Assembly: GCA_944470555.2 (NCBI GenBank)
Contig: OX104134.1
Coordinates: 53,311,890-53,375,889, forward strand
DNA: 64,000 nt
Source: Heterobilharzia americana
Taxonomy: Eukaryota > Platyhelminthes > Trematoda > Strigeidida > Schistosomatidae
Direction: 5' to 3'
Below the pieces are notes generated by a model. It did no database searches. It saw only the letters and a list, made by a program, of their open reading frames with translations, and was not told the origin of the DNA. This document shows positions 4,428 to 61,218 of the stretch, piece by piece. The translations under genes and the position numbers were made by a program. Each line of letters starts with the position of its first letter. The stretch's first letter is position 1.

Positions 4428-6822
4428 TCAAAACCAATCGGAAATAATAAATACTATTCGCTCATCAGTTTCGATAAATACTTCAACTCCAACAGATCCT
4501 CAGTGTGTTAGTTGTTTAGTCGGTAGGTTTTACTTCAAATAAAAACGCTTATTGAAGGATTTGTTTATACAGATTTAAAGTGTTTTGATGAGTAGCAAAA
4601 ACTGAGATGAACTGATTGTCTTATCTGTGTAAATGATATCTATTGATACGAGATGGGTTCTAGTCCCCGTTGGAACACCTTCATTTACTGGGGTGCAAAT
4701 ACATCTGTCTAACACGCATTATGCATTCCCCCGCTAGCCGCAAAGAAAACTATACTAAATGTGAATAGTAGTTGTTGGCAATTGACATTTTCAAGCGGTT
4801 TTCATCATTCATAGATATCCATTGAAGGACCGCTGAATGCATGCGATAACCGGAAAATTGCGTCCACCTGGTTCGAAACTCTTCAGTGGTGCAGACACAT
4901 GGTCCTCCAAAAAGCTGAGCCTTAGATCGTCAGGATGTGCAGTGAACAGGTTACAATGCAACCACTTGACTGAAATCCCGTCGTTCACCATTTCCTACTT
5001 TTGTCGATTCACAATAGAGTGTGGTAATCATTGAAACTAGGAAGAAAAATGGTGTCCAGTTCTCTTAGGTTTTCAAAAGCTCTCCAACTGATCACACTCC
5101 GTAGTAAAAAGTGCTTGGAAATCAGTTAGTGTCTACCAACCATGAATTATATTAATAGTCATATTTCAAACAATAGTCTGGTACTCAATGAACATCAGGA
5201 AATGTGCCACGGAGTGATGTTTGGTTTTAAAAGTATTTCTTAGCTAAATTAGACCAGCCAACTTCTGGGACAGTGTAGAAGTATCTTCTCGAAAGAAGCC
5301 AATCAGATATGATGTAGCGCAGATTTTTCTTGATGCGTCTTACAACTAGGACATTTAGCCATAGGGAAAGGATATTTATTCAACTTCAATCAACTAACAA
5401 ACTAATCTTCAAGTCTCTTGATTATAGAGAGGAAGTATGAAATGAAGCCATAATAGTTGTGGTCATGAAACGTCGTAAACTCAACTGTGGTATTCTTTAC
5501 TGTAATAATGGGTAACGTGAGTATGGATTTCTGAAATCGCATCAGTCCCCTCAACTTCACCTTTTTGACAAGTGCAAGACAGAGTTTTAGGTCCCCCACT
5601 AATTGTCATCAACGGAATAATTGTCAGTCAAAAGTGACATTAGTCACTTCTTTCTAAACTACCTTGTAACCTTTTCATTTCAGTATACATCATAGGTGGT
5701 TATTAGTTTCAATATGTCTTTCAGTGTCTTTTCATCTTTTAAGAATCATAAACTAGTCGTTGAGGGAACCTTTAATTTTAATCGCTATAACTCTTGATCG
5801 AAAACCCTATGATTATTCACTTATTGGAAAATGATTGCATAAACTTAATTTTCAAAAGTCTTTGAGCATTCAAAGTGGTGCTTATAATACCATTGCAGAT
5901 CAAAGATAAACGGAAATCATCGGTAGATTGATTTCACTATGCACATTGCTGGTCAGAGTTTTACATTACGTGATCGAATGTACTGAACACTGTTTTTTTG
6001 CAAATATTATCACATTCGGAAATTTTAGAAAAAAAGTTTCCAAAGATGATCAGAGTTGACAGAAAACACAGGTCGCAATTGAGATAAAATCGATAATATT
6101 CTGGTTACCCGTCCGAGGCTTCATCACCTCAGCCATAAGACTGTTCTGACCAGTTTTTACTGTCAATTCAAAAGTGTGCTTTTCCCGAATATAAAATGAG
6201 TGTCTATCATTTCTTATTCGGAGGTTTATCGTTCGGATTCTGTCGCGATTTGTTTTTTCTACTCGATTCAGTGATCTATGAATATGAAAACCAGCCTACT
6301 AAAAATGGTTGTGTAATGCCATTTAGTTAATGAAGTAAAAGTCCTTACTGAAGTCATTTTTATGTGGATAAAAAGGATGTAGGCGGAAATCTAGGGTGAT
6401 AATGAGCAAATGGTCAAGTAAACTTGATAAGCATGAAAATGGAAAAAAACTCGAATGGTTGTAGTAACGTCGACACAGTTATCATTTGTATCTTGTGACT
6501 AAATCCAATACAGGGTAAACTGAGTGCTCCAAATCCTGCCATGACTCGGATATCAATTCAAATAAGTACAGTATCCTCGAATATAACACCCAAACTCCCA
6601 GCCAATGCCATTTCGGGTAGACTAGTTGAAAACTGTTCTTCTAAAGCCTAAGTTATTGGAAACTGTATAGCACTCAGTACAAACGCTTTTGCCATGATAC
6701 TTATGATGAGTGTGTGTACTCTTGACAAAATAGATTATTCAATGGTTTTTGGCTTCTAATAAAAATGACATTGACTCTGTTAACGATTAGAATATTAGAA
6801 AAAAATCAGTATCCTTTCTTAC
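4428..6822. other. 3' side of the MPEG1-like gene; last exon not located
   Basis: The last MPEG1-like exon seen ends at a good donor at 6822, so at least one more exon, with the rest of the Cys-rich domain and the membrane anchor, must lie 3' of it on the minus strand. No convincing one was found. A short open stretch near 6655-6565 (-) follows an AG but has no family similarity. Region 4630-4730 looks SINE-like but was not assigned. Confidence 0.4.
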
Positions 6823-7667
6823 TTGACATATATCTTCCATAGAAGCTAAATGTGCTGTATATCCAGTTGGACATCTTTTTGGCCAGAAGATTGCAAATAA
6901 TTGTGAATAATCATTCTGCGTAGATTTCCCACTGAAGGGAATGATACTTTCTTCCCTTGATGTTGGTGAAGTCGAAAGACGTTTCTGTTGTGAATTATTA
7001 TTTGGTGAAAACTTTGCCTGTTGTTGACTCTTGAACCAATCTGGTAGAGATGCACTTTTTGATGTACCATCACCACTACTAGTTTGGTTATTAGTGATTA
7101 AATCTGTCAAGGGATTTCCAGAATAACAACTATAGAATCCACCAAATGGTAGTGAATGTTTTCCAGCTAACTCTCTATCACTTGATAGACAGATACGCAT
7201 ACGTCTACCAAGTGCTATTGGCCAATAATATTGTGGACAATTGTACTGTTTGGTCAAACTATTCACCTCTTTATCTGTATACAGTCCACCAAATAAGTAA
7301 CCACTATCATTGATATCCGGTAGGAAATATGATGGATCACGTGAACACCAATATGATTCTGTAATCGCACAGTTAGTTGTACAATCAGGATTTTTGAACC
7401 ACGATTTCTCACTGCATACACTATAACACCTTCTAACTTGTTGTGGTAACAACTGTACAGGTATATAACCATGTGGACAGGTTAAATCACCAGTAAGTGG
7501 ATTCGCTATAACTTCACTGATGCACAAATCATCTGGACCCACACACTTTTGAAAGACACCTCCAAGATACAAGGTTGAATTCATTGTTTGTTTACTGTGT
7601 ATATCGCATTCTGTAGAGGCTACATTGGCTTCATTATCATAGAATGCTGATAAAGGATTCATACAAC
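6823..7667 (-). CDS. MPEG1-like exon e (Cys-rich lumenal domain)
   Basis: An 845-nt exon from acceptor atattatag to donor CAA|GTAAGA; 281 full codons. Its first codon is completed by the G left over from exon d, giving VGC. Motifs in order: GGVFQKC, NPLTGDLTCPHGYIPVQLL, YLFGGLYTDKEVNSLT, CPQYYWPIALGRRMRICLS, LPFGGFYSCYSGNPLTDL and CPTGYTAHLASMEDICQ. The paired Cys and FGG repeats are the hallmark of the P2/Cys-rich domain. Between the GNPL block and CPTGY is a long Ser/Gln/Asn-rich insertion, longer than I recall in vertebrate proteins. Confidence 0.93.
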
Positions 7668-10600
7668 CTATAATATAAATGAATACATTATTGTCTATAA
7701 TATTAGGACGTAAAGATTGTTATTGTGTAGGTTCAATTATCCTATCTTTGTGCATGTTTGTTTCATATATAAAAAGGTATTACTCATCGCTTACGCGTAC
7801 CCAAACATTTCAACTTGAGCACTATCACTGGGATGTGCATCATCTGCTAAGCAAAATGGCACGATGGTCTAAATGAAACGACTCTCTTGGTGCATTGCAT
7901 GCAAGAGCATGAAATTCACCATAGGAATGTTGCTTGCACAAATCTTAACTTGCAGTCAACTTTCACTTTTACAACAATCCATTTCATATTCTTACCAATG
8001 CAAAGATCTTAAACGAAGATTATCTAGAACTTTTCAAAGAATCTCTGTTTGTTCCATATTGTTTCAAACAGGATCGGCTATCATTCAGCAGTGTCAATGC
8101 CTGAGTACAGAATGCAATGCCGAGAGAAATTCACTCATCCTGGCCTCAATCCACTTAAACAGTGTTTGCAAACTGTAATGTGTTAAGTCTTCCAACTATA
8201 TGTGTTCTTTTCCTGCTGTATACTTCGGAATTCACATTGTTGTTTACTTATGTCTGTGACATAATTACTGAGTGATGAAGACAGCTCTTTTGAAATCGTC
8301 ATTAGATCACATATGCTAGAAAGGGTTTGTGTTTGCGTTGATAATTGGTCATACAGTGAGCAGTGTAAAACCCATGTCCTAAATGGAGGCAACTCTCAGG
8401 TGCATGATTAGTCATATGCCTTGCAATTGTGATTAGTAAACATAATTTAACCGCAATATTCTTTTGTCTTCTTTGTAAAAGTTTTAAGTGGAATTTCGCC
8501 TACATTATTTGCACTTTACCAATTTAGCACTAGCGATGCAAAATAATTAGTAGACAAGGAATTAGGGAACTTGTTATTGAAAGAAATGGATATTAGTAAG
8601 CTCATCTACTCCAAATTAATTATCACTAGCTTCAATTCCATTTCGATTATATGGGTTCAGTCATATAGTCTGAACAGCCTTTCTACTCTCTCTGGTAACC
8701 TGGTAACCAACTTGATCGGCGTTAACAGGAGGTAAATACTGAAGGTTTCTGACATTGTTTACTGAAATGCTATAAATTTTCAAGTCCACACATACTTTAT
8801 TTTAGTAGAACCCAAAGGTCTAGACTCGAATTGAAGTTTTTCACTATTCATACTTGATAAAAGATTATCGGAGGAACCATACTATTTTACTACTTCTTAA
8901 TGAGTCAGAATTCAAAAGCATAGATTGACTGACTGACAGGATGAAAATTAAACAAAAGAGTTAGTCCCCTTGTTGCAAAATGTCACTCTTTATCACCATA
9001 CTAAGCAGAAATCAATTAATAAGGGTCTCGATGGGTCATAAAGAAAAAAATTAACACAAGACAATTCAGTGAAGAAATTTTGTTATAACAGTTCGTTTTT
9101 CATATATCACATGGTGAAACAGTATTGTTTATTGATATTATTTCAAGTATTATTTATCGTCCACAATCATATTAAGTTTTCTTTCGATGATTTATTTTTA
9201 GTAGCTGCACATTCGTAGGGATAGTTAAGACGGCAAAATATGTTCATCAGTGTCTAATGAGTTAACACACAGGTGTTATAAGAAAAAAGTAGCTTCCAGA
9301 ATAATAAAGGAATTGGGTGTTCACTGTTGTGTTCAAAAGAATATCGTCCATTCTGTAATTTTACCCTGAACGTATACATTTCATCTGTCAGTATTATTAT
9401 TTAGTTTGGGGTTTATGGGGATTTTATTTATTTCAAGGTATTACTAATCACGAGCTGGTATCAACTCGAAAATCATTGAAAACCTTGAAGCACTGGACAG
9501 CTGTTTCGTCCTACTATGAGACTTCTCAACAGCGTCTACCCACGAGGTGTCCCACGGGAATGAACTCAGAACCTTCAGCTTTTATGGAGAAAGCATTGAC
9601 CATTCAGCTACTAGGTCGGAGTCCAGTTGTTCACAGTTCCCAACTCCTGTCAGTTCGCTATATAACATGACTATCCACCAGGGTCTTTTTCAGTTGGCAT
9701 CCACTGAGAAGTACGACATACTGCTGCGGAGGCCTATACTAGGATGAATCAGCTGTTCAGTCCTCCCAAGTTTCTAATTGTTCTCCGATTGATTTCAGCC
9801 CATGATGAACGCCACCCTAAAATATTATTCTCATCCTCTTTTCCTTAATCTGTAATTGTATATACCAATTTTCCTACTACTGTCCCACTTCTTTAACCTC
9901 TTCCACTCCTTTGCAGCTATTACTCAATCACCCTGTTATTCTAAAAACCACTTACCAATAAAGTTTAAAATGAAATTTTGATGGCCTTGTGTTGACCTCT
10001 AAGTAGGTGGTGAAAATATAGTCGGCTTGTAATTCATTCAGAAATTTTGATTACGTTGTGTTGACCTGCTCTCACAATAACTATGATTCACCGACAAAAG
10101 GTCCAAGAATGTAAGGCTATCCACTGGAATAGCTAGCTCCAAGTTGGTTACTTCCGAGCTTTGTCAGCTAACATGGTGTCCATGGAATTGTGAATCTCCT
10201 AGTAATCTTAAGACGACTTTTATCTAGTATTAAGAATCCGTTCAACCATACTGTAAACAGATTACGCAGCTCATCTGTGAAAGGTGTATGTTTTTCCTAG
10301 TAATGAATTCCGTAAATTAAAAACCAAAACCCAATCTGACTGAAACCTTATTTAGATACAGTTAGACATCAGAGGTGGTGAAATCCAAGACCTGACCAGA
10401 AATTGTTCATGACATGTACAAACATCTGTACTGATGTCCTCTCGCAGAAAACAGAGGTGATCTTTGCTTTTACCGTCGGGTTGTTATCATCTAGGCTACT
10501 CAGTTACTAGACTCATTATGATCCAAGCACAGATCAATATGATTATTGCCATTAACTAATCATTATCACTCTGATATACTTACCAACCACAGTATTAGCC

Positions 10601-13600: not shown

Positions 13601-16600
13601 CTGCTGAAACATCCTATTAAACCTATCTATTTTGTAGTGAAAAAAAGGATTTTGAGACGAAGTAAATAAATGCAGTCGGCAAATGAAGTGGTTACTAAGG
13701 CGGTCTTTAGAGTCATTCTCAGAAAGTCAGGATCACGTGGCTGGGCCGAAGTAAGATATTTACAGCCACCAGTTCAAGCATGTGATTGTATACATTTTAT
13801 CGATCACCAAATTTGCTACTTTTCATTGCTACACGATTACTAAGGGTCACATCTAATTTCGCGTCTATTTGTTTCTCTTTGGGAGTCGTCAGCTGGGTGC
13901 ATCCACATCCGAAACTAGACTCGCGAGTTACTGTGCCCATCAAGTGGCAATATTGAGATAACCGCGTAATCAGCTACTTTGTACAGGAGGAAGCATTTTC
14001 TAATGCTCATGGGTGACTAACTTTGAGAGGTGAATTTCTGAGGTTCTAATGAGAAGTCGTGGCCGGTGAGGCAAACCTGATGGATGTGAGGACAAATACT
14101 CAACGATGACATTGGATGGAAATCGTCCCATATCGTGAACTGACAGTAGTTGGGAATACAGACCATTGGATTCCAACCCTTGGTTCAATGGTAACGTACC
14201 GGCCAGGGAATCTAAATGTCCTGGGGTCAAAAGTGCACACTGCTGAGGAGTCCCATACTAGGATGAAACAGCTGTCCAGTGATCCCAGGTGTTTAGCATT
14301 TCTATGACTGATGTCAGTCTATGACGAGTACCAACTTGAAATCAATAAATCCCCACAACCTCTCAAACTGAAAAAAATGTTTGTGTAGATTTAGAAATTT
14401 AAAGGGTTTCACATATCTATAAAGTTAGTTGAACATATATGTACTGCAAACTTTATGAGCTTTGAAGTCGTGGCTAACGGTAAAAGCATAAGCCAGATAC
14501 TCTTTAACAACTTGAAAACTGATCAAATAAAAAGCAAAACGGGTAACTTCTTGAATGTTGAAGACCTTTAATTCTATATGTTGCTCTTATTTGATTGGTT
14601 GTTTGTTTGGGCCTGTTTGAAAACGACTGATTTTATCTGCCTGTCATTCTGATAGTTGAATAGCTGATCAAATTCAAATACGGAAACATACTGAGATACT
14701 CACTTGAAGTACCTTCAGAGGAAAAAAATACTCCAATGAGATAAAAAGAAATATTCCTTCTATGAACATTTTTCCAGAAGACAAAACTTACTGTGGATAC
14801 ATTACTTTTAGTTGACCCTTCAAGTTTAAAGTTGAAAAGATTCGCAAAACTAACTGTTGCTGATGTGCCTAATCGCCATCTGTCCTCTTTCTTAACATTG
14901 AATGAACTTGTGTCCAAAGTATCGGTTTTTGCTAAGACTGCGCCAACATGAATCGAATTTATGCAGTGTGTGCCAAAATCTCTAAAAAATAACAGTAATG
15001 GTAGATTAAGATGATTTAGGGATTCCGTTTGTCACCGCTAACAGGTTTAACTATTAGTTATTTTTACAGACTTATGGTACAATAAAAATATCTGGTATCA
15101 TCGTGCATTTTTTCACACTAGTGGTTATCTCATTTTAAGACTGTTGTCGAAAGAACCGTTAGAAACTTAACCAAATATCTAGATTGTACTTTCAGCCTAC
15201 CTTCGACGCAAAAGCTTAACCAGTTTATTTTCGCGTCAATGCACTATTAGAAAGATAAGTGATCATACATCGTCTCTTGATACTTGTAATTTCCCGTTAC
15301 TATACATGGCCGCATCACTTGACCTCTGTTGGAGGAGGTTGAGTCACACTAGAGGCGGCTATCTTATCCCAGTGGCCTCGTGGGTAACGTTTTGGCGTTT
15401 GAAGCCGTGGATACTGGGTTATAGTTTCAGTGGGAACAACATCACTCATTGGGCACAGATATATCCGGCCGAAGAGTCCTGAATAGGACTAAACATGCGT
15501 TTCTGATTCCACTGCTAGTCAGCAAAATGAATATTCATTAATTCCGTTCAACTCTTCAGCTTAAATACCAAAGTGGGCCGTAACACTCGCTAACTTAATG
15601 TATTCTACACCTTTCAATGGGCATTCATGGTTCATCTCTGTCTCACTTGATGTATAATCAGTTTTTGTGTTTACTACCTATCATTTCTTTTGATTCGTAT
15701 CTTCTGCTGATAGGACTGGATTTACTCACCCTTCATTGAGTAACAGTTTGCAGCCTGAAATTTGAACCTTGTTTTGACTTCTTCAAATACCAGTATACTA
15801 TTCAACAGACTACTTAGCCAAAACAGCCCCTTTTGTGTTACAGATCTTATCATACTCTTAATTTCCAATGCAAATACGAGATTCCGCAGTTAGCTACTAC
15901 TTAAAGAAAAGAAATTTCGAGTTGACTCTGCAAGGATACTCCATCACATGCCACCAAAATTCGACCAATTAGACCCAAAAGAGCAAAACAGTAGATTGCA
16001 GAATGTAATTACTGACAATCAATTCTTCTCAAAAGTGTTTAACAGTCTGCCTTTCAATTATTCTGTACACTGTTGTAGGGATGAAAACTGGAACAAATTG
16101 AAATTACACGCGAATAGGAACCATGGTGCACAATTTTCTATACTTTTCTTTATTTTACATTCTGTTTAGTTTTATTCTTCAAATCCTTGTGGTCAACAGC
16201 AGAATTAATAAATAAAAGTAAGTAAACACTTAAAATGGATATTATTTTGGCTTAAGTTGCTTAAGATAGGATTAGTTGACAGACTTAACTAAGGGGATAT
16301 TGAATGAAACTGAAAGAGAAGATGGATAGACAGACCAAATTTCATTCAATATAAATTGAATGAGTAACAAAACTCAGTTGCTGACCTCGTGTAATTTTCA
16401 ATTCAGTTATGAAATTTTGTTGTGTGAAAATGAATGTGATGGTTACAGTAAGTAGGTGAAGGTTATAAGAAAACGATGTTCACTTGTCCAATACTTTTTT
16501 AATGACCGGTCTAAAATGATGTTGCTAACTAGTTGACTTAAAGTTTCGGTTTTTGACTTTTTAGTCAATCCTCATCTCTCCTCAATAAAAAATTCATTTT

Positions 16601-30329: not shown

Positions 30330-30600
30330 GAGGTGACATTCATCGTGGAATGACATTAGTTGGAGAACCGTTGAAAATCTGGGAGCACTAAGACTACTGT
30401 TTCGTCCTCGTATGGGATTTCCCAGCACTTCCTACCCACGGTTTGGCTACGGATCGATCTCAGGATCTTCATGTTTCATGGCGAATACGTTAACCATTCA
30501 GTCACTGGATTAGAACTCAGCGTGATTATCACTTAAGGTCGTCAGTTGGCATCCGCTTCCCTTCTAACTGGTTGACTCCACAGGTCATGGCTTCTCATTA
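30330..30600 (-). mobile_element. SINE minus copy, decayed hammerhead
   Basis: On the minus strand it shows the SINE head and a hammerhead block GAGGACGAAACAG with a mutated core (CTGGGAA) and cleavage region. The high-coordinate end abuts the next, plus-oriented copy. Confidence 0.65.
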
Positions 30601-30735
30601 GAACGTTGGGATATCCATCTGGTGAGGAGTCCTACACTAGGATGAAACAGCCGTTCAGTGCTCCAAGTTTTTCAATGGTTATCCAAATGATGTCAGTCCG
30701 TGATGAATGCTACCTTAATAATACAAAATATTTGT
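30600..30735 (+). mobile_element. SINE 3' fragment (plus), partial hammerhead
   Basis: ggtgaggagtcctacactaggatgaaacag keeps most of the ribozyme, but the 5' strand of stem I and the first core base are lost at the junction with the neighbouring copy, and the cleavage triplet is altered (cgttc). The tail includes tgatgtcagtccgtgatgaa. Confidence 0.65.
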
Positions 30736-30809: not shown

Positions 30810-31170
30810 TTTCAAGTTGTTATTCATCGAAGACTGACATCAGTTGGAGGAACAAAGGAAACCTGGGAGCACTGGACAGCTGTTTCGTCCTAGTATGGGA
30901 CTCCTCAGCAGTGCGCACCCACGACCCCACCCCACTTGGGATCGAACCCGCGACCTTCAGGTTCCGCGACCAGCACGTTACCATTGAGCCACTGGGTCAG
31001 AATCCAATGCTCCATATTTCCAACTTCTGTTAGCTCACGATATAGCGCAAACCGCCACCCAATGTCATCGTTGAGTATTTGTCCTCACGGCCATCAGGCT
31101 TTGACTCCACCGGTCACGACTTGTCATTGGAACTTCGGGAATACTTCTCGAAGCTAGTCACCAACGGCAC
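30810..31170 (-). mobile_element. Near-complete tRNA-derived SINE with perfect hammerhead
   Basis: Read on the minus strand: 5' segment (ccaatgacaagtcgtgaccgg), ggctcaatggtaacgtgctgg as A-box, ggttcgatccc as B-box, the hammerhead at 30914-30869, then a tail with ccaactgatgtcagtcttcg. The tail's last ~30 bases recur at 31217-31250, which may be a second truncated tail or a flanking duplication. This is the best-preserved copy in the window. Confidence 0.85.
30869..30914 (-). ncRNA. Type-I hammerhead ribozyme, all core residues intact
   Basis: On the minus strand, stem I GCACTG pairs with CAGTGC over 6 bp without mismatch. The core is CTGAGGA. Stem II GTCCC...GGAC forms 4 Watson-Crick pairs around a short loop. 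The GAAA box is followed by CAGCTG and cleavage triplet GTC, with the cut expected 3' of position 30875. ACAGCTGT is an 8-base palindrome, so two transcripts can pair through stem III to form a double hammerhead. Confidence 0.82.
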
Positions 31171-31411
31171 TAGTTCAATTAAATTTTGAGGGGGTTGTGG
31201 AGATTTGGAAATATTTCAAGTTGTTATTCATCGAAGACTGACATCAGTTTTGTTTTTTGTTTAGCACTATTAAGGCGTGAATATTCGTTAAAATATCAAA
31301 CCCAAATTAACTATAAATCCCAAGAAAGTGTGTATTTGTAGAAGAACAGTGAATCAATGTTAACTAGTTCCGGGGGAAATTTGTTAATTTTTATCGTAAT
31401 ACAACTTTGTA

Positions 31412-59000: not shown

Positions 59001-61218
59001 CATTTCCTCTTCTTCTTCTATCTCCATTTACTCATCATACGCCCACACTCTCTTATGTTTTTCTGTGCAGAATGTTTATCCATCGATGATAATTGCCTAT
59101 GACGTCTCAACACATATTACTTACTTATATCCATTCTTGTCAGTAGCACCCACTACAATATTACTAGTTGGCCGAATGATAGCTTACATCATAATAGAAT
59201 ATTTTGATCAATAGGATCATATAACTGTGCAAAGATGTTGTAAATATGTCTTACTTTTACGTAATAATTATTTTGTATGGTGAGTTGATTCAAGTTGGGA
59301 AATGCTGTGGACGAGTATTGGTCTCGAGTGATTTAGAAGATAAAGTCCACTCAATATCATGTAGTTTAAAATTCCATTGTTTTCGGAACTCATTATCCGG
59401 TTAGACTGCCAGAAGTAAGTAATATGTTGCACTGTTTTATGCAAAAATTTTGACGTTTAAACAAGACAACATACTCGTAGTGTGTTACACAGCGCTTAAA
59501 TGAAATTAGGCGACTTGATTTACAGAAGGTAAACTTTAGGTTGCTTTTATCCAAAGTAATTACTTACATAGGATTCGCTGTACATGCAGTATCTGGTGAA
59601 CTATTTCTAGACTTTATTTCATTCACTGCTTGGTTTTATATACTGGTAACACCCACTAGTACAAATATATAACAACTGGACTACAGGCACGACATAACTA
59701 CTCAATTACTCTCCTAACGTTTTCCATTATAACCACCTTAGTTTATAAAACTCACTAATTAATGATCATTTTAAATAAGGTAAAACTACTGTGAAATAGA
59801 GGTTGGTGTGAGAAACTTTGCATTGTCACACTGAACAACATGAGATTCATCTTAAAACTTTTTTGAGCCATCTGAATAGTAGGCATCCCTCCTTGCTTTT
59901 ATGCATTGAATCTTGATGAATCAAAGTATCACGGAAATACAAGTAATTATTACCTGTTTATGTCATAAACCCTGATCTTATCAAAGATTCGAAGGGTCAA
60001 TAACCTGAATGGTTTAGAAAACTTCAGTACTGAAGTTAGCGGTGACGATGTTGTGTAAAAAGACAATGAAAGCTTCTCGATTGAACCACTCACGTCAGAG
60101 AACACAATCAAACTTTACCCGTTCGTGAGACTTTTCCATAACAATGCATTTAAAGCCCTATAAAATGTTAAAATATAACATGAATTACTGTTTAATACTT
60201 GTAGTTTCCCGTTTCTATACATGGTCGAATTGCTCGACCTCTGAAGAGCATAGGAGGTCCTATGCGAACGCCTTGATACTGCCGGTATTCATGATGTTTT
60301 ATTCATCTTGGTGGCTTACAGAGGAATCCAAAACACACGCTCTGTCCTATTTGAGACTCTTTAGCTGCACCCCAGTGAGTGATGTTGTTCCTGCCGAAAC
60401 TCGAACCCGGGACTGATCGCTTCAAACGCCAAAGAGTTACCCACTAGGCGACTGGGGACGAGATATACCTCTTTTGCAACGGGTGTCAGCTGACGAGCCC
60501 CAAATAGGTAGGAAAGCGCATCCTGGATTCCACTGCTAGTCACCAAGATGAATACATCATGAACTATATTGAAATCTAAATTTCACAAGATAATAAAAAT
60601 ATGTAACAATACTCCAATGGGAAGGTTGCAAACCTGAACTGCAGATGACTAATTCCTAGAGCTGAAATGAAATTCGTACAGCTTGAAGTGGTGCTTTTAC
60701 ACAACAGTAGTCGTGAGTGTTCAAATGGCTGATGATGACTATCCACTATTTGAACTATTATGTAAACCGTTTACGAACCGTATAACGGTAGGTCAGTAAA
60801 TTCGACTGATTAATCAGTTTATGCTTTGATTGATAGTTTCAATTCTTGAGAGAAGTTTCTTCTGGGAGGTGAATAGTAAATGATACAAAATTATCATCAA
60901 CAGATAAATGGATCATTAACAAACTTACTTATCTTTACTCATTAAATCCAATAATCCAAATATAGACTGATCAGTATTGGAAGATTCTAGTGTGGCAAGA
61001 TTATTTTCTAAATTATTACGCCGTCGATTAACTTCAATTAGTGCAGTTGTCGCTTTGACAAGTGGATCATCAGGTAGATTAGATATTATTTGAGAGATTT
61101 CATTTGACGGTGTCATTGATTTACCAGAATATTCCATTGCAAGTCGAATACTTGGAAGTAAACTACCGGGACTGAGTACAGGTTGGGAGTTTGAAAGCAA
61201 TGAACCTGGATCCATATT
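52976..61218 (-). CDS. Unrecognised helical protein, three in-phase exons
   Basis: Exons 61218-60929, 58604-58535 and 53023-52976 share phases (2 then 0) and good splice signals. The joined reading starts around MDPGSLLSNSQPVL and moves into a Leu/Asn/Arg-rich, probably helical stretch (ALIEVNRRRNNLENNLATLE). It continues through ADKARIQAMINDAIDKVAQE to KTLKDIGGVKVM. I suspected a centrosomal-type protein from the composition but could not place it, so no name is given. The second intron carries an RTE fragment and the foldback element. Confidence 0.6.
53024..54849 (-). other. Intron, with SINE-like and unassigned repeat remnants
   Basis: gagtcagtggttagaacg near 54110 resembles an A-box. The stretch 54540-54830 looks like worn repeat DNA but was not assigned. 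No exon was recognised. Confidence 0.4.
54850..55791 (-). pseudogene. Degenerate 5' half of an RTE retrotransposon
   Basis: It parallels the endonuclease part and leader of the full element: WDVRNMYESSKAAQIAKEIR, CESTWNGSG, then leader ctagtaactagtgaactagttaacc. About 250 bp of the endonuclease present in the full copy near 49436-49692 is cleanly missing at about 55213. Frameshifts separate the remaining frames. The reverse transcriptase part is absent, which is the opposite of the usual 5' truncation. Confidence 0.85.
55885..56750. repeat. Foldback element with ~350-400-bp inverted arms
   Basis: The left arm (about 55885-56245) and the reverse complement of the right arm (about 56345-56750) match in order over many blocks: aacaatctgatcac; gtcgagtaggaaggc (gttgagtaggaaggc on the left); and, further in, aatgaccaaggccttg with ggatcc. 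A centre of about 100 bp remains unpaired. Divergence between arms is moderate. Frames inside (56183-56473, 56500-56742) show no transposase or polymerase motif. It could be a non-autonomous DNA element or two inverted copies of one repeat. Confidence 0.75.
56751..58534 (-). other. Intron of the helical-protein gene
   Basis: AT-rich, no exon or known repeat recognised. Confidence 0.45.
58535..58604 (-). CDS. 70-nt exon of the helical-protein gene
   Basis: Acceptor atttttacag, one base plus 23 codons (SSADKARIQAMINDAIDKVA then QEK), donor GTAAGT. The first base completes a Lys codon with the two bases left from 60929. Confidence 0.65.
58605..60194 (-). other. Intron of the helical-protein gene
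   Basis: No exon recognised. The plus-strand frame at 58933-59214 is hydrophobic and Ser/Tyr-rich but has no start context or family likeness. Confidence 0.45.
60195..60560 (+). mobile_element. Nested SM-alpha-like elements in opposite orientation
   Basis: A plus element starts tacttgtagtttcccgtttc, as at 15280. From about 60262 to 60460 the sequence is minus-oriented (element tail, a decayed hammerhead with GAGTCTCAAATAGGAC, then the tRNA-like head reversed). From about 60461 the plus element resumes with cagctgacgagccccaaata, ending ctggattccactgctagtc. The plus block keeps core CTGACGA and a pairable stem I. Its stem II is disrupted and the GAAA box displaced. One element seems to have inserted into another. 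Confidence 0.65.
60929..61218 (-). CDS. First visible exon of the helical-protein gene
   Basis: Acceptor ttttcattag, then 96 full codons and two bases to donor AA|GTAAGT. It contains MDPGSLLSNSQPVLSPGSLL, PSNEISQIISNLPDDPLVKA and IFGLLDLMSKD. An ATG at 61215 could be the start, with the exon's first codon as leader. Since a good acceptor precedes it, upstream exons are also possible. Confidence 0.65.

What the first reader, a model, noticed from the sequence alone, without database searches (positions are those of the whole stretch)
30869..30914. Perfect hammerhead ribozyme inside a tRNA-derived SINE, with palindromic stem III
Seen: the minus strand carries GCACTG, CTGAGGA, a 4-bp stem II, GAAA, CAGCTG and GTC, then CAGTGC. 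Every conserved hammerhead position is present and stem I is a 6-bp perfect pair. Known: schistosome SM-alpha repeats encode hammerheads that work poorly alone because stem III is minimal. Inferred: the self-complementary ACAGCTGT would let two RNAs pair through stem III and cut as a dimer. Sequence and layout differ from SM-alpha here, so this looks like a separate ribozyme-bearing SINE family.
Basis: partly seen in the sequence, partly recalled or inferred. Interest (0 to 1): 0.75.

Follow-up and report, generated by a model that had tools for sequence, protein, structure and literature searches.

The report
Hammerhead SINE with Penelope-style insertions
A flatworm chromosome carries a young mobile RNA element with its own self-cutting hammerhead ribozyme; the way its copies sit in the genome suggests it is copied by Penelope-type retrotransposon enzymes, which would explain how this widespread class of ribozyme elements spreads.

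Summary
The hammerhead at 30914-30869 (minus) is real: Rfam type I, 47.8 bits against a threshold of 34. It lies in one copy of a roughly 403-bp repeat with a tRNA-like head (family A). A is not SM-alpha-like beyond the ribozyme: the same 665-Mb flatworm genome also holds an SM-alpha-type family (B, up to 73.2 bits), and A and B match significantly only around the hammerhead. The palindromic stem III is real, but dimer-capable palindromes are already in print and B has one too. The larger finding is how the copies sit. Among the best-scoring places, 18 of 38 clusters are head-to-head inverted pairs and none tail-to-tail; tandems are spaced 401-403 bp. Insertions have two fixed ends 36 nt apart, one on each side in 9 of 9 with both ends read, and target duplications in 6 of 6 tested. 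That is the published anatomy of Penelope-like elements (PLEs). The genome holds a young PLE with the same layout: 17 head-to-head, 0 tail-to-tail, 26 tandem pairs. Best reading: a non-autonomous hammerhead SINE (retrozyme) copied by PLE machinery. That step is inferred; a tail shared with the PLE, and cleavage itself, are untested.

The parts
30869..30914 (-). Type I hammerhead ribozyme, predicted cut between 30875 and 30874
   Evidence: Rfam RF00163 47.8 bits, E 3.1e-9; full-length model match with no non-standard pair marked
30909..30914 (-). Stem I, 5' strand (GCACTG)
   Evidence: read from sequence; alignment
30902..30908 (-). Conserved core CTGAGGA
   Evidence: read from sequence
30887..30901 (-). 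Stem II GTCC/GGAC with 7-nt loop CATACTA
   Evidence: alignment
30876..30883 (-). Stem III + loop, self-complementary ACAGCTGT (2 bp + AGCU loop in one molecule, 8 bp between two)
   Evidence: co-folding
30869..30874 (-). Stem I, 3' strand (CAGTGC), first base 3' of the cut
30810..31249 (-). The whole family-A copy: a 36-nt tail of a preceding unit, then one full ~403-bp unit; 98.4% identical to a unit of L053
   Evidence: A positions 1-439; siblings
30923..30998 (-). tRNA-like head: A-box-like 30991-30981 (TGGCTCAATGG), B-box-like 30948-30938 (GGTTCGATCCC)
   Evidence: read by eye; no tRNA called at default settings, relaxed ARAGORN call on the older consensus only
30810..30845 (-). 3' tail ending at the short end (...CAACTTGAA)
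31214..31249 (-). Upstream direct repeat of the same 36-nt tail (100% identical)
31179..31214 (-). AC-rich 36-nt stretch between the short and the long end; here internal to the copy
   Evidence: sequence; end positions
14000..14367 (+). Older family-A copy with hammerhead 14237-14282 (37.3 bits)
9408..9826 (.). Older family-A head-to-head pair: minus arm 9408-9664 (long end), plus arm 9720-9826 (short end)
30338..30708 (.). Older family-A head-to-head pair next to the main copy: minus arm 30338-30611, plus arm 30619-30708 (ends not resolved)
15380..15521 (+). SM-alpha-type (family B) copy with hammerhead 15463-15507 (35.1 bits)
60250..60543 (.). Family-B head-to-head pair (minus 60250-60446, plus 60487-60543)

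Best explanation
The feature is the ribozyme of a young copy of a non-autonomous retroelement, family A: a ~403-nt unit with a 5' part, a tRNA-like head, a type I hammerhead and a 64- to 100-nt 3' tail. Proposed cycle: tandem copies are transcribed (internal Pol III-type boxes or read-through; inferred). The hammerhead cuts after C17 and releases unit-length 5'-OH RNAs that may be ligated into circles, as reported for other metazoan retrozymes (inferred). A Penelope-like reverse transcriptase/endonuclease then cuts both strands of a target and starts copying inside the RNA at one of two sites, 64 or 100 nt past the ribozyme cut (inferred from the fixed ends). Copying primed from both cut strands, joined in the middle, would give head-to-head arms with tails outward, one short and one long end, one target duplication, and tandem units (structure shown, mechanism inferred; self-priming, proposed for rotifer PLEs, is an alternative for the arms). 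The window copy is a one-strand form: one full unit preceded by a 36-nt tail.
For: Hammerhead. Source-level conservation: 0 of 44 changed sites in 46 nt, P = 0.0035. Pairing kept while letters change between families: 94.6% of cells paired, 17 cells changed on both sides, slid controls at most 36.8% (18 rows picked among Rfam matches, which leans towards pairing). Young siblings 97-98% identical over ~440 nt. 38 clusters of best-scoring places: 18 head-to-head, 0 tail-to-tail, 16 one-strand tandem (3 of them one captured repeat on C128), 4 single; of 5 one-strand clusters read at the join, 3 hold an inverted arm. Random sample plus window: of 23 same-family neighbour pairs within 300 bp, 18 head-to-head, 2 tail-to-tail, 3 same-strand. 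Two 3' ends 36 nt apart; 9 of 9 head-to-head insertions with both ends read carry one of each (L051, L053, L054; L024, L031, L032, L044, L045, window 9408, long ends 0 of 500 shuffles, short ends at least 217 of 500). Target duplications in 6 of 6, score 11-12, against 30 mismatched flank pairs, maximum 9. Same genome: a young PLE, 132 scored RT hits of 28,259 candidates, 129 without a stop inside, frames 383-977 aa, with 17 head-to-head, 0 tail-to-tail and 26 tandem pairs at 2653-2654 bp. Published PLE anatomy: inverted pLTR, optional 31-bp tail, 8-10-bp duplications (PMC3846280 passages); two internal RT start sites in an AC-rich stem loop explaining the 30-40-bp tail, both strands cut and extended, hammerhead nearby (PMC11167929, parts 1-2 of 4).
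Against: No shared sequence between the family-A tail and the genome's PLE was tested: the tail search did not complete and no young PLE sequence was fetched. Old PLE pieces already held show no family-A tail by BLAST, a weak test. Family B's two main end classes are about 110 nt apart, not 30-40, and 11 of 30 B copies fall in neither. Duplications of 12-14 bp are longer than the 8-10 bp quoted for rotifer PLEs. The tRNA head is weak. Core positions are not specially kept in single old copies. No RNA data. In the anole PLE, ribozyme mutants did not affect insertion in vitro. The most stable predicted monomer fold is not the hammerhead (-14.5 against -8.6 kcal/mol), and the 65-nt fold has z only -1.8; tertiary contacts are not modelled.
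Confidence: 0.62

Rival explanations
1. Ordinary tRNA-headed SINE copied by a LINE (for example the LINE-like element in this window); inverted arms are 5' inversions by twin priming.
For: tRNA-like boxes and target duplications of 12-14 bp would fit LINE-type insertion; LINE-like frames lie at 50233-47067 (by eye).
Against: Twin priming (recalled) leaves a 3' tail at one end only; here both outer ends are 3' tails. No poly-A or simple-repeat end was seen in the insertions read. Two fixed ends 36 nt apart, one on each side, are not expected.
Confidence: 0.13
2. The family is already known: a local relative of the S. japonicum Sj-alpha SINE, so only the host is new. This can be true together with PLE copying.
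For: Sj-alpha is a separately named hammerhead SINE, and S. japonicum has ~650 pseudogenes from tRNA-Pro-CGG (PMC2770079 passages; the paper does not link the two). Family A's head also differs from the Gln-type head of the SM-alpha-type family B.
Against: The Sj-alpha sequence could not be obtained (Laha 2000 was not looked up; it is cited in PMC2770079), so there was no direct comparison either way.
Confidence: 0.25
3. Fold-back DNA transposon or MITE whose terminal inverted repeats happen to contain a hammerhead.
For: Inverted arms with a single target duplication.
Against: Arms differ in length with variable junctions, 401-403-bp tandems are common, some places are single units, and the two ends are unequal. 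Conservation of the hammerhead at source level implies an RNA stage.
Confidence: 0.04
4. One reading: the ribozyme acts chiefly as a dimer through the palindromic stem III.
For: 8-bp intermolecular stem III; co-fold -33.1 against 2 x -14.5 kcal/mol. The palindrome is kept in family B with other letters (ACGCGCGT).
Against: A two-pair helix III with a tetraloop is described as similar to invertebrate hammerheads, most of which self-cleave efficiently (PMC7229834 passages), so dimers may be an option rather than the mode. Stem III shows no change on both sides in the pair test.
Confidence: 0.3

Closest known systems
SM-alpha (S. mansoni hammerhead SINE)
   Same: Type I hammerhead with 2-bp palindromic stem III near the 3' end, tRNA-like head, high copy number; an SM-alpha-type family B is in the same genome
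   Different: Family A matches the B consensus significantly only over 48 nt of the hammerhead region, 77%; stem I, loop II and stem III letters differ
Sj-alpha (S. japonicum)
   Same: A separately named hammerhead SINE (PMC2770079 passages)
   Different: Sequence not available here; relation not tested
Metazoan non-LTR retrozymes (PMC7229834)
   Same: 150-450-bp tandem units with type I hammerheads, target duplications longer than 4 bp
   Different: Family A has a tRNA-like head and frequent head-to-head pairs with two fixed ends; a review says metazoan retrozymes show no motif revealing the helper element, while naming PLEs/Terminons as likely candidates (PMC7761336, sections 8 and 9)
Penelope-like elements (PMC3846280, PMC11167929)
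   Same: Tandem and head-to-head repeats, optional 30-40-bp tail, short target duplications, AC-rich RT start region, hammerhead close by
   Different: Family A is ~403 bp, too short to encode an RT, has a tRNA-like head, and its duplications are 12-14 rather than 8-10 bp

Membership tests
Type I hammerhead ribozyme (RF00163) | Match above curated covariance-model threshold | tested here: met
   47.8 bits against 34
Type I hammerhead ribozyme (RF00163) | Conserved core and three helices, pairing kept across variants | tested here: met
   94.6% cells paired, 17 cells changed on both sides, 17 distinct rows of 18; rows were chosen among Rfam matches; stem III has no double change
Type I hammerhead ribozyme (RF00163) | Self-cleavage | not testable with these tools
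   no RNA or wet-lab data
SM-alpha SINE | Sequence similarity along the element, not only the ribozyme | tested here: not met
   one significant match to the B consensus, 48 nt over the hammerhead; three further matches at E 0.36-0.96.
SM-alpha SINE | tRNA-Gln-TTG-type head | tested here: inconclusive
   TTTGAAG loop read by eye in the B consensus, not in A; no default tRNA call for A or B loci
Sj-alpha SINE | Sequence similarity to Sj-alpha | not testable with these tools
   sequence not available; the original paper was not looked up
Metazoan retrozyme | Short (150-450 bp) tandem units with type I hammerhead | tested here: met
   401-403-bp spacing; hammerheads in the tandem units of L051 and L053
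Metazoan retrozyme | Target duplications longer than 4 bp | tested here: met
   6 of 6 insertions, 12-14 bp, at most one mismatch
Metazoan retrozyme | Circular and linear unit-length RNAs | not testable with these tools
   no RNA data
PLE-type integration | Head-to-head inverted units under one target duplication | tested here: met
   18 of 38 clusters, none tail-to-tail; duplications around 6 of 6 head-to-head insertions tested
PLE-type integration | Optional 30-40-bp tail at one end | tested here: met
   ends 36 nt apart; one of each in 9 of 9 insertions with both ends read, 6 of 15 head-to-head insertions not readable
PLE-type integration | AT-rich target site | not tested
   duplications look AT-rich by eye; no comparison with the genome background was run
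PLE-type integration | Autonomous PLE in the same genome | tested here: met
   132 scored RT hits, 129 without a stop inside, same layout; activity only inferred from near-equal scores
PLE-type integration | Tail or RT-start sequence shared with the autonomous PLE | not tested
   tail search unanswered; no young PLE sequence fetched
Classical SINE | Pol III internal promoter | tested here: inconclusive
   box-like motifs by eye; relaxed ARAGORN call on the older consensus only
Classical SINE | 3' end shared with a LINE | not tested
   no LINE 3' ends compared

The most novel reading that the evidence does not exclude
Hammerhead SINEs of the SM-alpha class, in print since 1989 as SINEs, are PLE-dependent SINEs: a tRNA-like head joined to a hammerhead plus a Penelope-type reverse-transcription start region. 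Both hammerhead families in this genome insert as convergent PLE products. This would identify the long-sought helper of metazoan retrozymes.
Probability: 0.5. Interest if true: 0.75.

Novelty: new variant of a known kind. Interest (0 to 1): 0.58.

Why it matters
Hammerhead elements occur in large numbers in many animal genomes, but the helper that copies them is only guessed at: a 2020 review says their repeats show no motif that would reveal it, while proposing PLEs or Terminons, and a 2024 review names LINEs or PLEs. Here the ends and arrangement of young copies point to PLEs, and a young PLE with the same layout sits in the same genome. That makes the question directly testable with one purified protein and one RNA, and offers many natural insertions for mapping the reaction.

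Tried and rejected
A recurrent 5' start at query position 355 in the table looked like a fixed cDNA end. Five of these places were read; in all five the unit runs on past that point, in three of them into an inverted arm, so it is an artefact of match splitting and was dropped.

Hammerhead-only matches (A positions about 318-428) were considered as PLE terminal repeats; their flanks share little beyond the module (one pair, L042/L045, shares 211 bp upstream), so I take them for decayed family-A copies. GIY-YIG: of two hits (150 candidates scored) one reads by eye as a host SLX1-like gene and one as a decayed PLE end, without family-A tail or hammerhead motif. The MIR9677 hit in L051 is the inverted-arm junction. 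A and B as one family: rejected. Species: protein matches are to flukes and a tapeworm; the species was not identified and a schistosome host is not claimed.

Rows dropped: of 15 family-A head-to-head insertions seen, six without two readable outer ends (L015, L034, L040, L042, L055, window 30338) are left out of the 9 of 9. By match ends alone L032 had read short/short; the finer test shows a diverged long tail on its plus arm. Copies above 96% identity were left out of the old-copy comparison. The two tail-to-tail neighbours (L031; window 30619/30810) look like separate insertions side by side.

Full report
Observation. Rfam scores it 47.8 bits, gathering score 34. Eight hammerhead hits lie in the window at E up to 10, and all eight overlap copies of two repeat families, A and B. 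The predicted cut follows C17 at 30875.

Host. The window is part of a 664,890,237-base assembly. One window protein has named relatives in Dicrocoelium, Schistocephalus and Opisthorchis among its five matches, so the host is a flatworm. I did not identify the species.

Two hammerhead families. The 74 scored hammerheads of the genome (207,358 candidates at first look, so counts are lower bounds) run from 62.4 to 73.2 bits, and the 30 fetched are of the SM-alpha type. The window's ribozyme belongs to another family, A. A consensus of the 30 family-B loci and a young A unit match significantly only over 48 nt of the hammerhead region at 77%. In 20 sampled places of 10 kb plus the window I counted 40 A and 37 B arms; without the window's 9 and 4 (hand count) that is 31 and 33 in 200 kb, very roughly 100,000 each per genome.

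Conservation. Among family-A copies of different age, 403 positions were covered by at least 8 older matches. At 44 of them most older copies differ from the young unit, and none of the 44 lies in the 46-nt hammerhead (P = 0.0035; with coverage of at least 20, 0 of 20 sites in 212 positions, P = 0.006; sites are treated as independent). In the well-covered stretch 20 of 166 windows of 46 nt are free of such sites, all starting between 328 and 347, around the ribozyme at 335. Single older copies tell a weaker story: 15.5% mismatch in the hammerhead, 14.6% in the tail, 22.9-26.0% elsewhere, and no special protection of core positions. Across 18 hammerheads of both families (17 distinct, chosen among Rfam matches), 94.6% of cells pair, 17 cells changed on both sides, and slid controls reach at most 36.8%. 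Five of the six pairs with double changes are in stem I; stem III shows none, although its palindrome is ACAGCTGT in A and ACGCGCGT in B.

Anatomy of the insertions. The genome search with the window copy scored 39 of 3265 candidates and listed 87 matches, which leans towards young copies. They fall into 38 clusters: 18 head-to-head, none tail-to-tail, 16 one-strand tandem (three of them the same captured repeat on C128), 4 single including the window copy. Five one-strand clusters were read at the join, and three hold an inverted arm after all. Tandem units are 401-403 bp apart. In the random sample plus window, 23 same-family neighbour pairs within 300 bp are 18 head-to-head (9 A, 9 B), 2 tail-to-tail and 3 same-strand.

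Ends. Family-A insertions end at one of two places, 64 or 100 nt after the ribozyme cut and 36 nt apart. Of 15 head-to-head insertions seen, 9 have both outer ends readable and all 9 have one short and one long end: L051, L053, L054 and L024, L031, L032, L044, L045, window 9408. In one search the long ends beat 500 of 500 shuffles and the short ends did not beat at least 217 of 500. Six of six tested insertions have a target duplication of 12-14 bp with at most one mismatch, scoring 11-12, while 30 mismatched flank pairs reach at most 9 (mean 4.9); boundaries were set by hand. So the inverted pair arrived as one event.

What this resembles. Penelope-like elements occur as tandems and with an inverted pLTR, an optional tail of 31 bp and 8-10-bp duplications; their authors propose self-priming for the head-to-head arms (PMC3846280, passages). 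In a purified anole PLE, reverse transcription starts at two adjacent internal sites in an AC-rich stem loop, which explains the 30-40-bp tail; the enzyme cuts and extends both strands at AT-rich sites, and a hammerhead lies nearby (PMC11167929, parts 1-2 of 4). Family A matches in tandems, head-to-head arms, tail length, an AC-rich stretch between the ends and a hammerhead nearby. Its duplications are somewhat longer, and target AT-richness was not tested.

A helper is present. A composite PLE RT query, typed from recall, found 132 scored hits (28,259 candidates) at 45-47% identity, 129 without a stop inside, in open frames of 383-977 aa. Neighbouring hits within 6 kb are 17 head-to-head, 0 tail-to-tail and 26 same-strand, all 26 at 2653-2654 bp. 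The genome's own PLE therefore has the same layout as family A. I could not read its ends, so tail sharing is untested.

SM-alpha-type copies do likewise. Of 30 family-B loci, 16 have an inverted copy of the ribozyme side upstream and 10 a direct one; downstream, 2 have an inverted and 2 a direct one. B's 3' ends fall mainly in two classes, 31-43 nt (13 of 30) and 150-152 nt (6 of 30) after the cut; 11 fall in neither, one being the reference. The step of about 110 nt is longer than the usual PLE tail.

Mechanism. I think family A is a non-autonomous hammerhead SINE or retrozyme copied by PLE machinery. Shown: the ribozyme motif, its source-level conservation, the two ends, head-to-head arms, target duplications and the PLE. 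Inferred: transcription, cleavage, circles, and PLE copying from both cut strands. Against: no shared tail shown, weak tRNA head, family B's longer step, no core-specific constraint in old copies, ribozyme mutants of the anole PLE still inserted in vitro, and a predicted monomer fold that beats the hammerhead on pairing energy alone (-14.5 against -8.6 kcal/mol; 65-nt fold z -1.8). The dimer idea is possible but not new: palindromic stem III sequences allowing dimers are described in PMC3088659 (figure legend).

Novelty. Reviews say that no motif reveals the helper of metazoan retrozymes, though PLEs or Terminons are proposed (PMC7761336, sections 8-9), or name LINEs or PLEs (PMC11722881, passages). 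So PLE copying is an idea already in print; the insertion evidence is what is new here. My searches listed nothing whose title, abstract start or passages read report head-to-head, two-ended insertions of hammerhead SINEs. But key older papers (Ferbeyre 1998, Cervera 2014, Lunse 2017) are not held and I did not look up Laha 2000, so this is weak evidence of novelty.

Noticed in passing
50273-50200 (minus): twister-P1 ribozyme-like match, 50.8 bits, below the gathering score of 67.2, at the 5' end of LINE-like open frames 50233-47067; PMC7761336 mentions twisters at 5' ends of RTE elements (passage). LINE-like is judged by eye; no domain search was run.
   Followed up: partly
G000 contig C128, near 54447, 59951, 65455: A family-A partial dimer recurs every 5504 bp, so it has been captured in a longer tandem repeat.
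   Followed up: no
G000, for example C4:19924900-19943667 and C6:11848752-11866156: Long tandem arrays of a young Penelope-like element with long open frames.
   Followed up: partly
L001-L030: SM-alpha-type copies have two main 3' end classes about 110 nt apart (31-43 and 150-152 nt after the cut), longer than a PLE tail.
   Followed up: partly
6787-7719 (minus): 310-aa open frame with relatives in Dicrocoelium (47%) and a tapeworm protein named WSC domain-containing.
   Followed up: no
50090-50025 (minus): SECIS-like match, 34.2 bits against a gathering score of 35, inside the LINE-like frame; probably chance.
   Followed up: no
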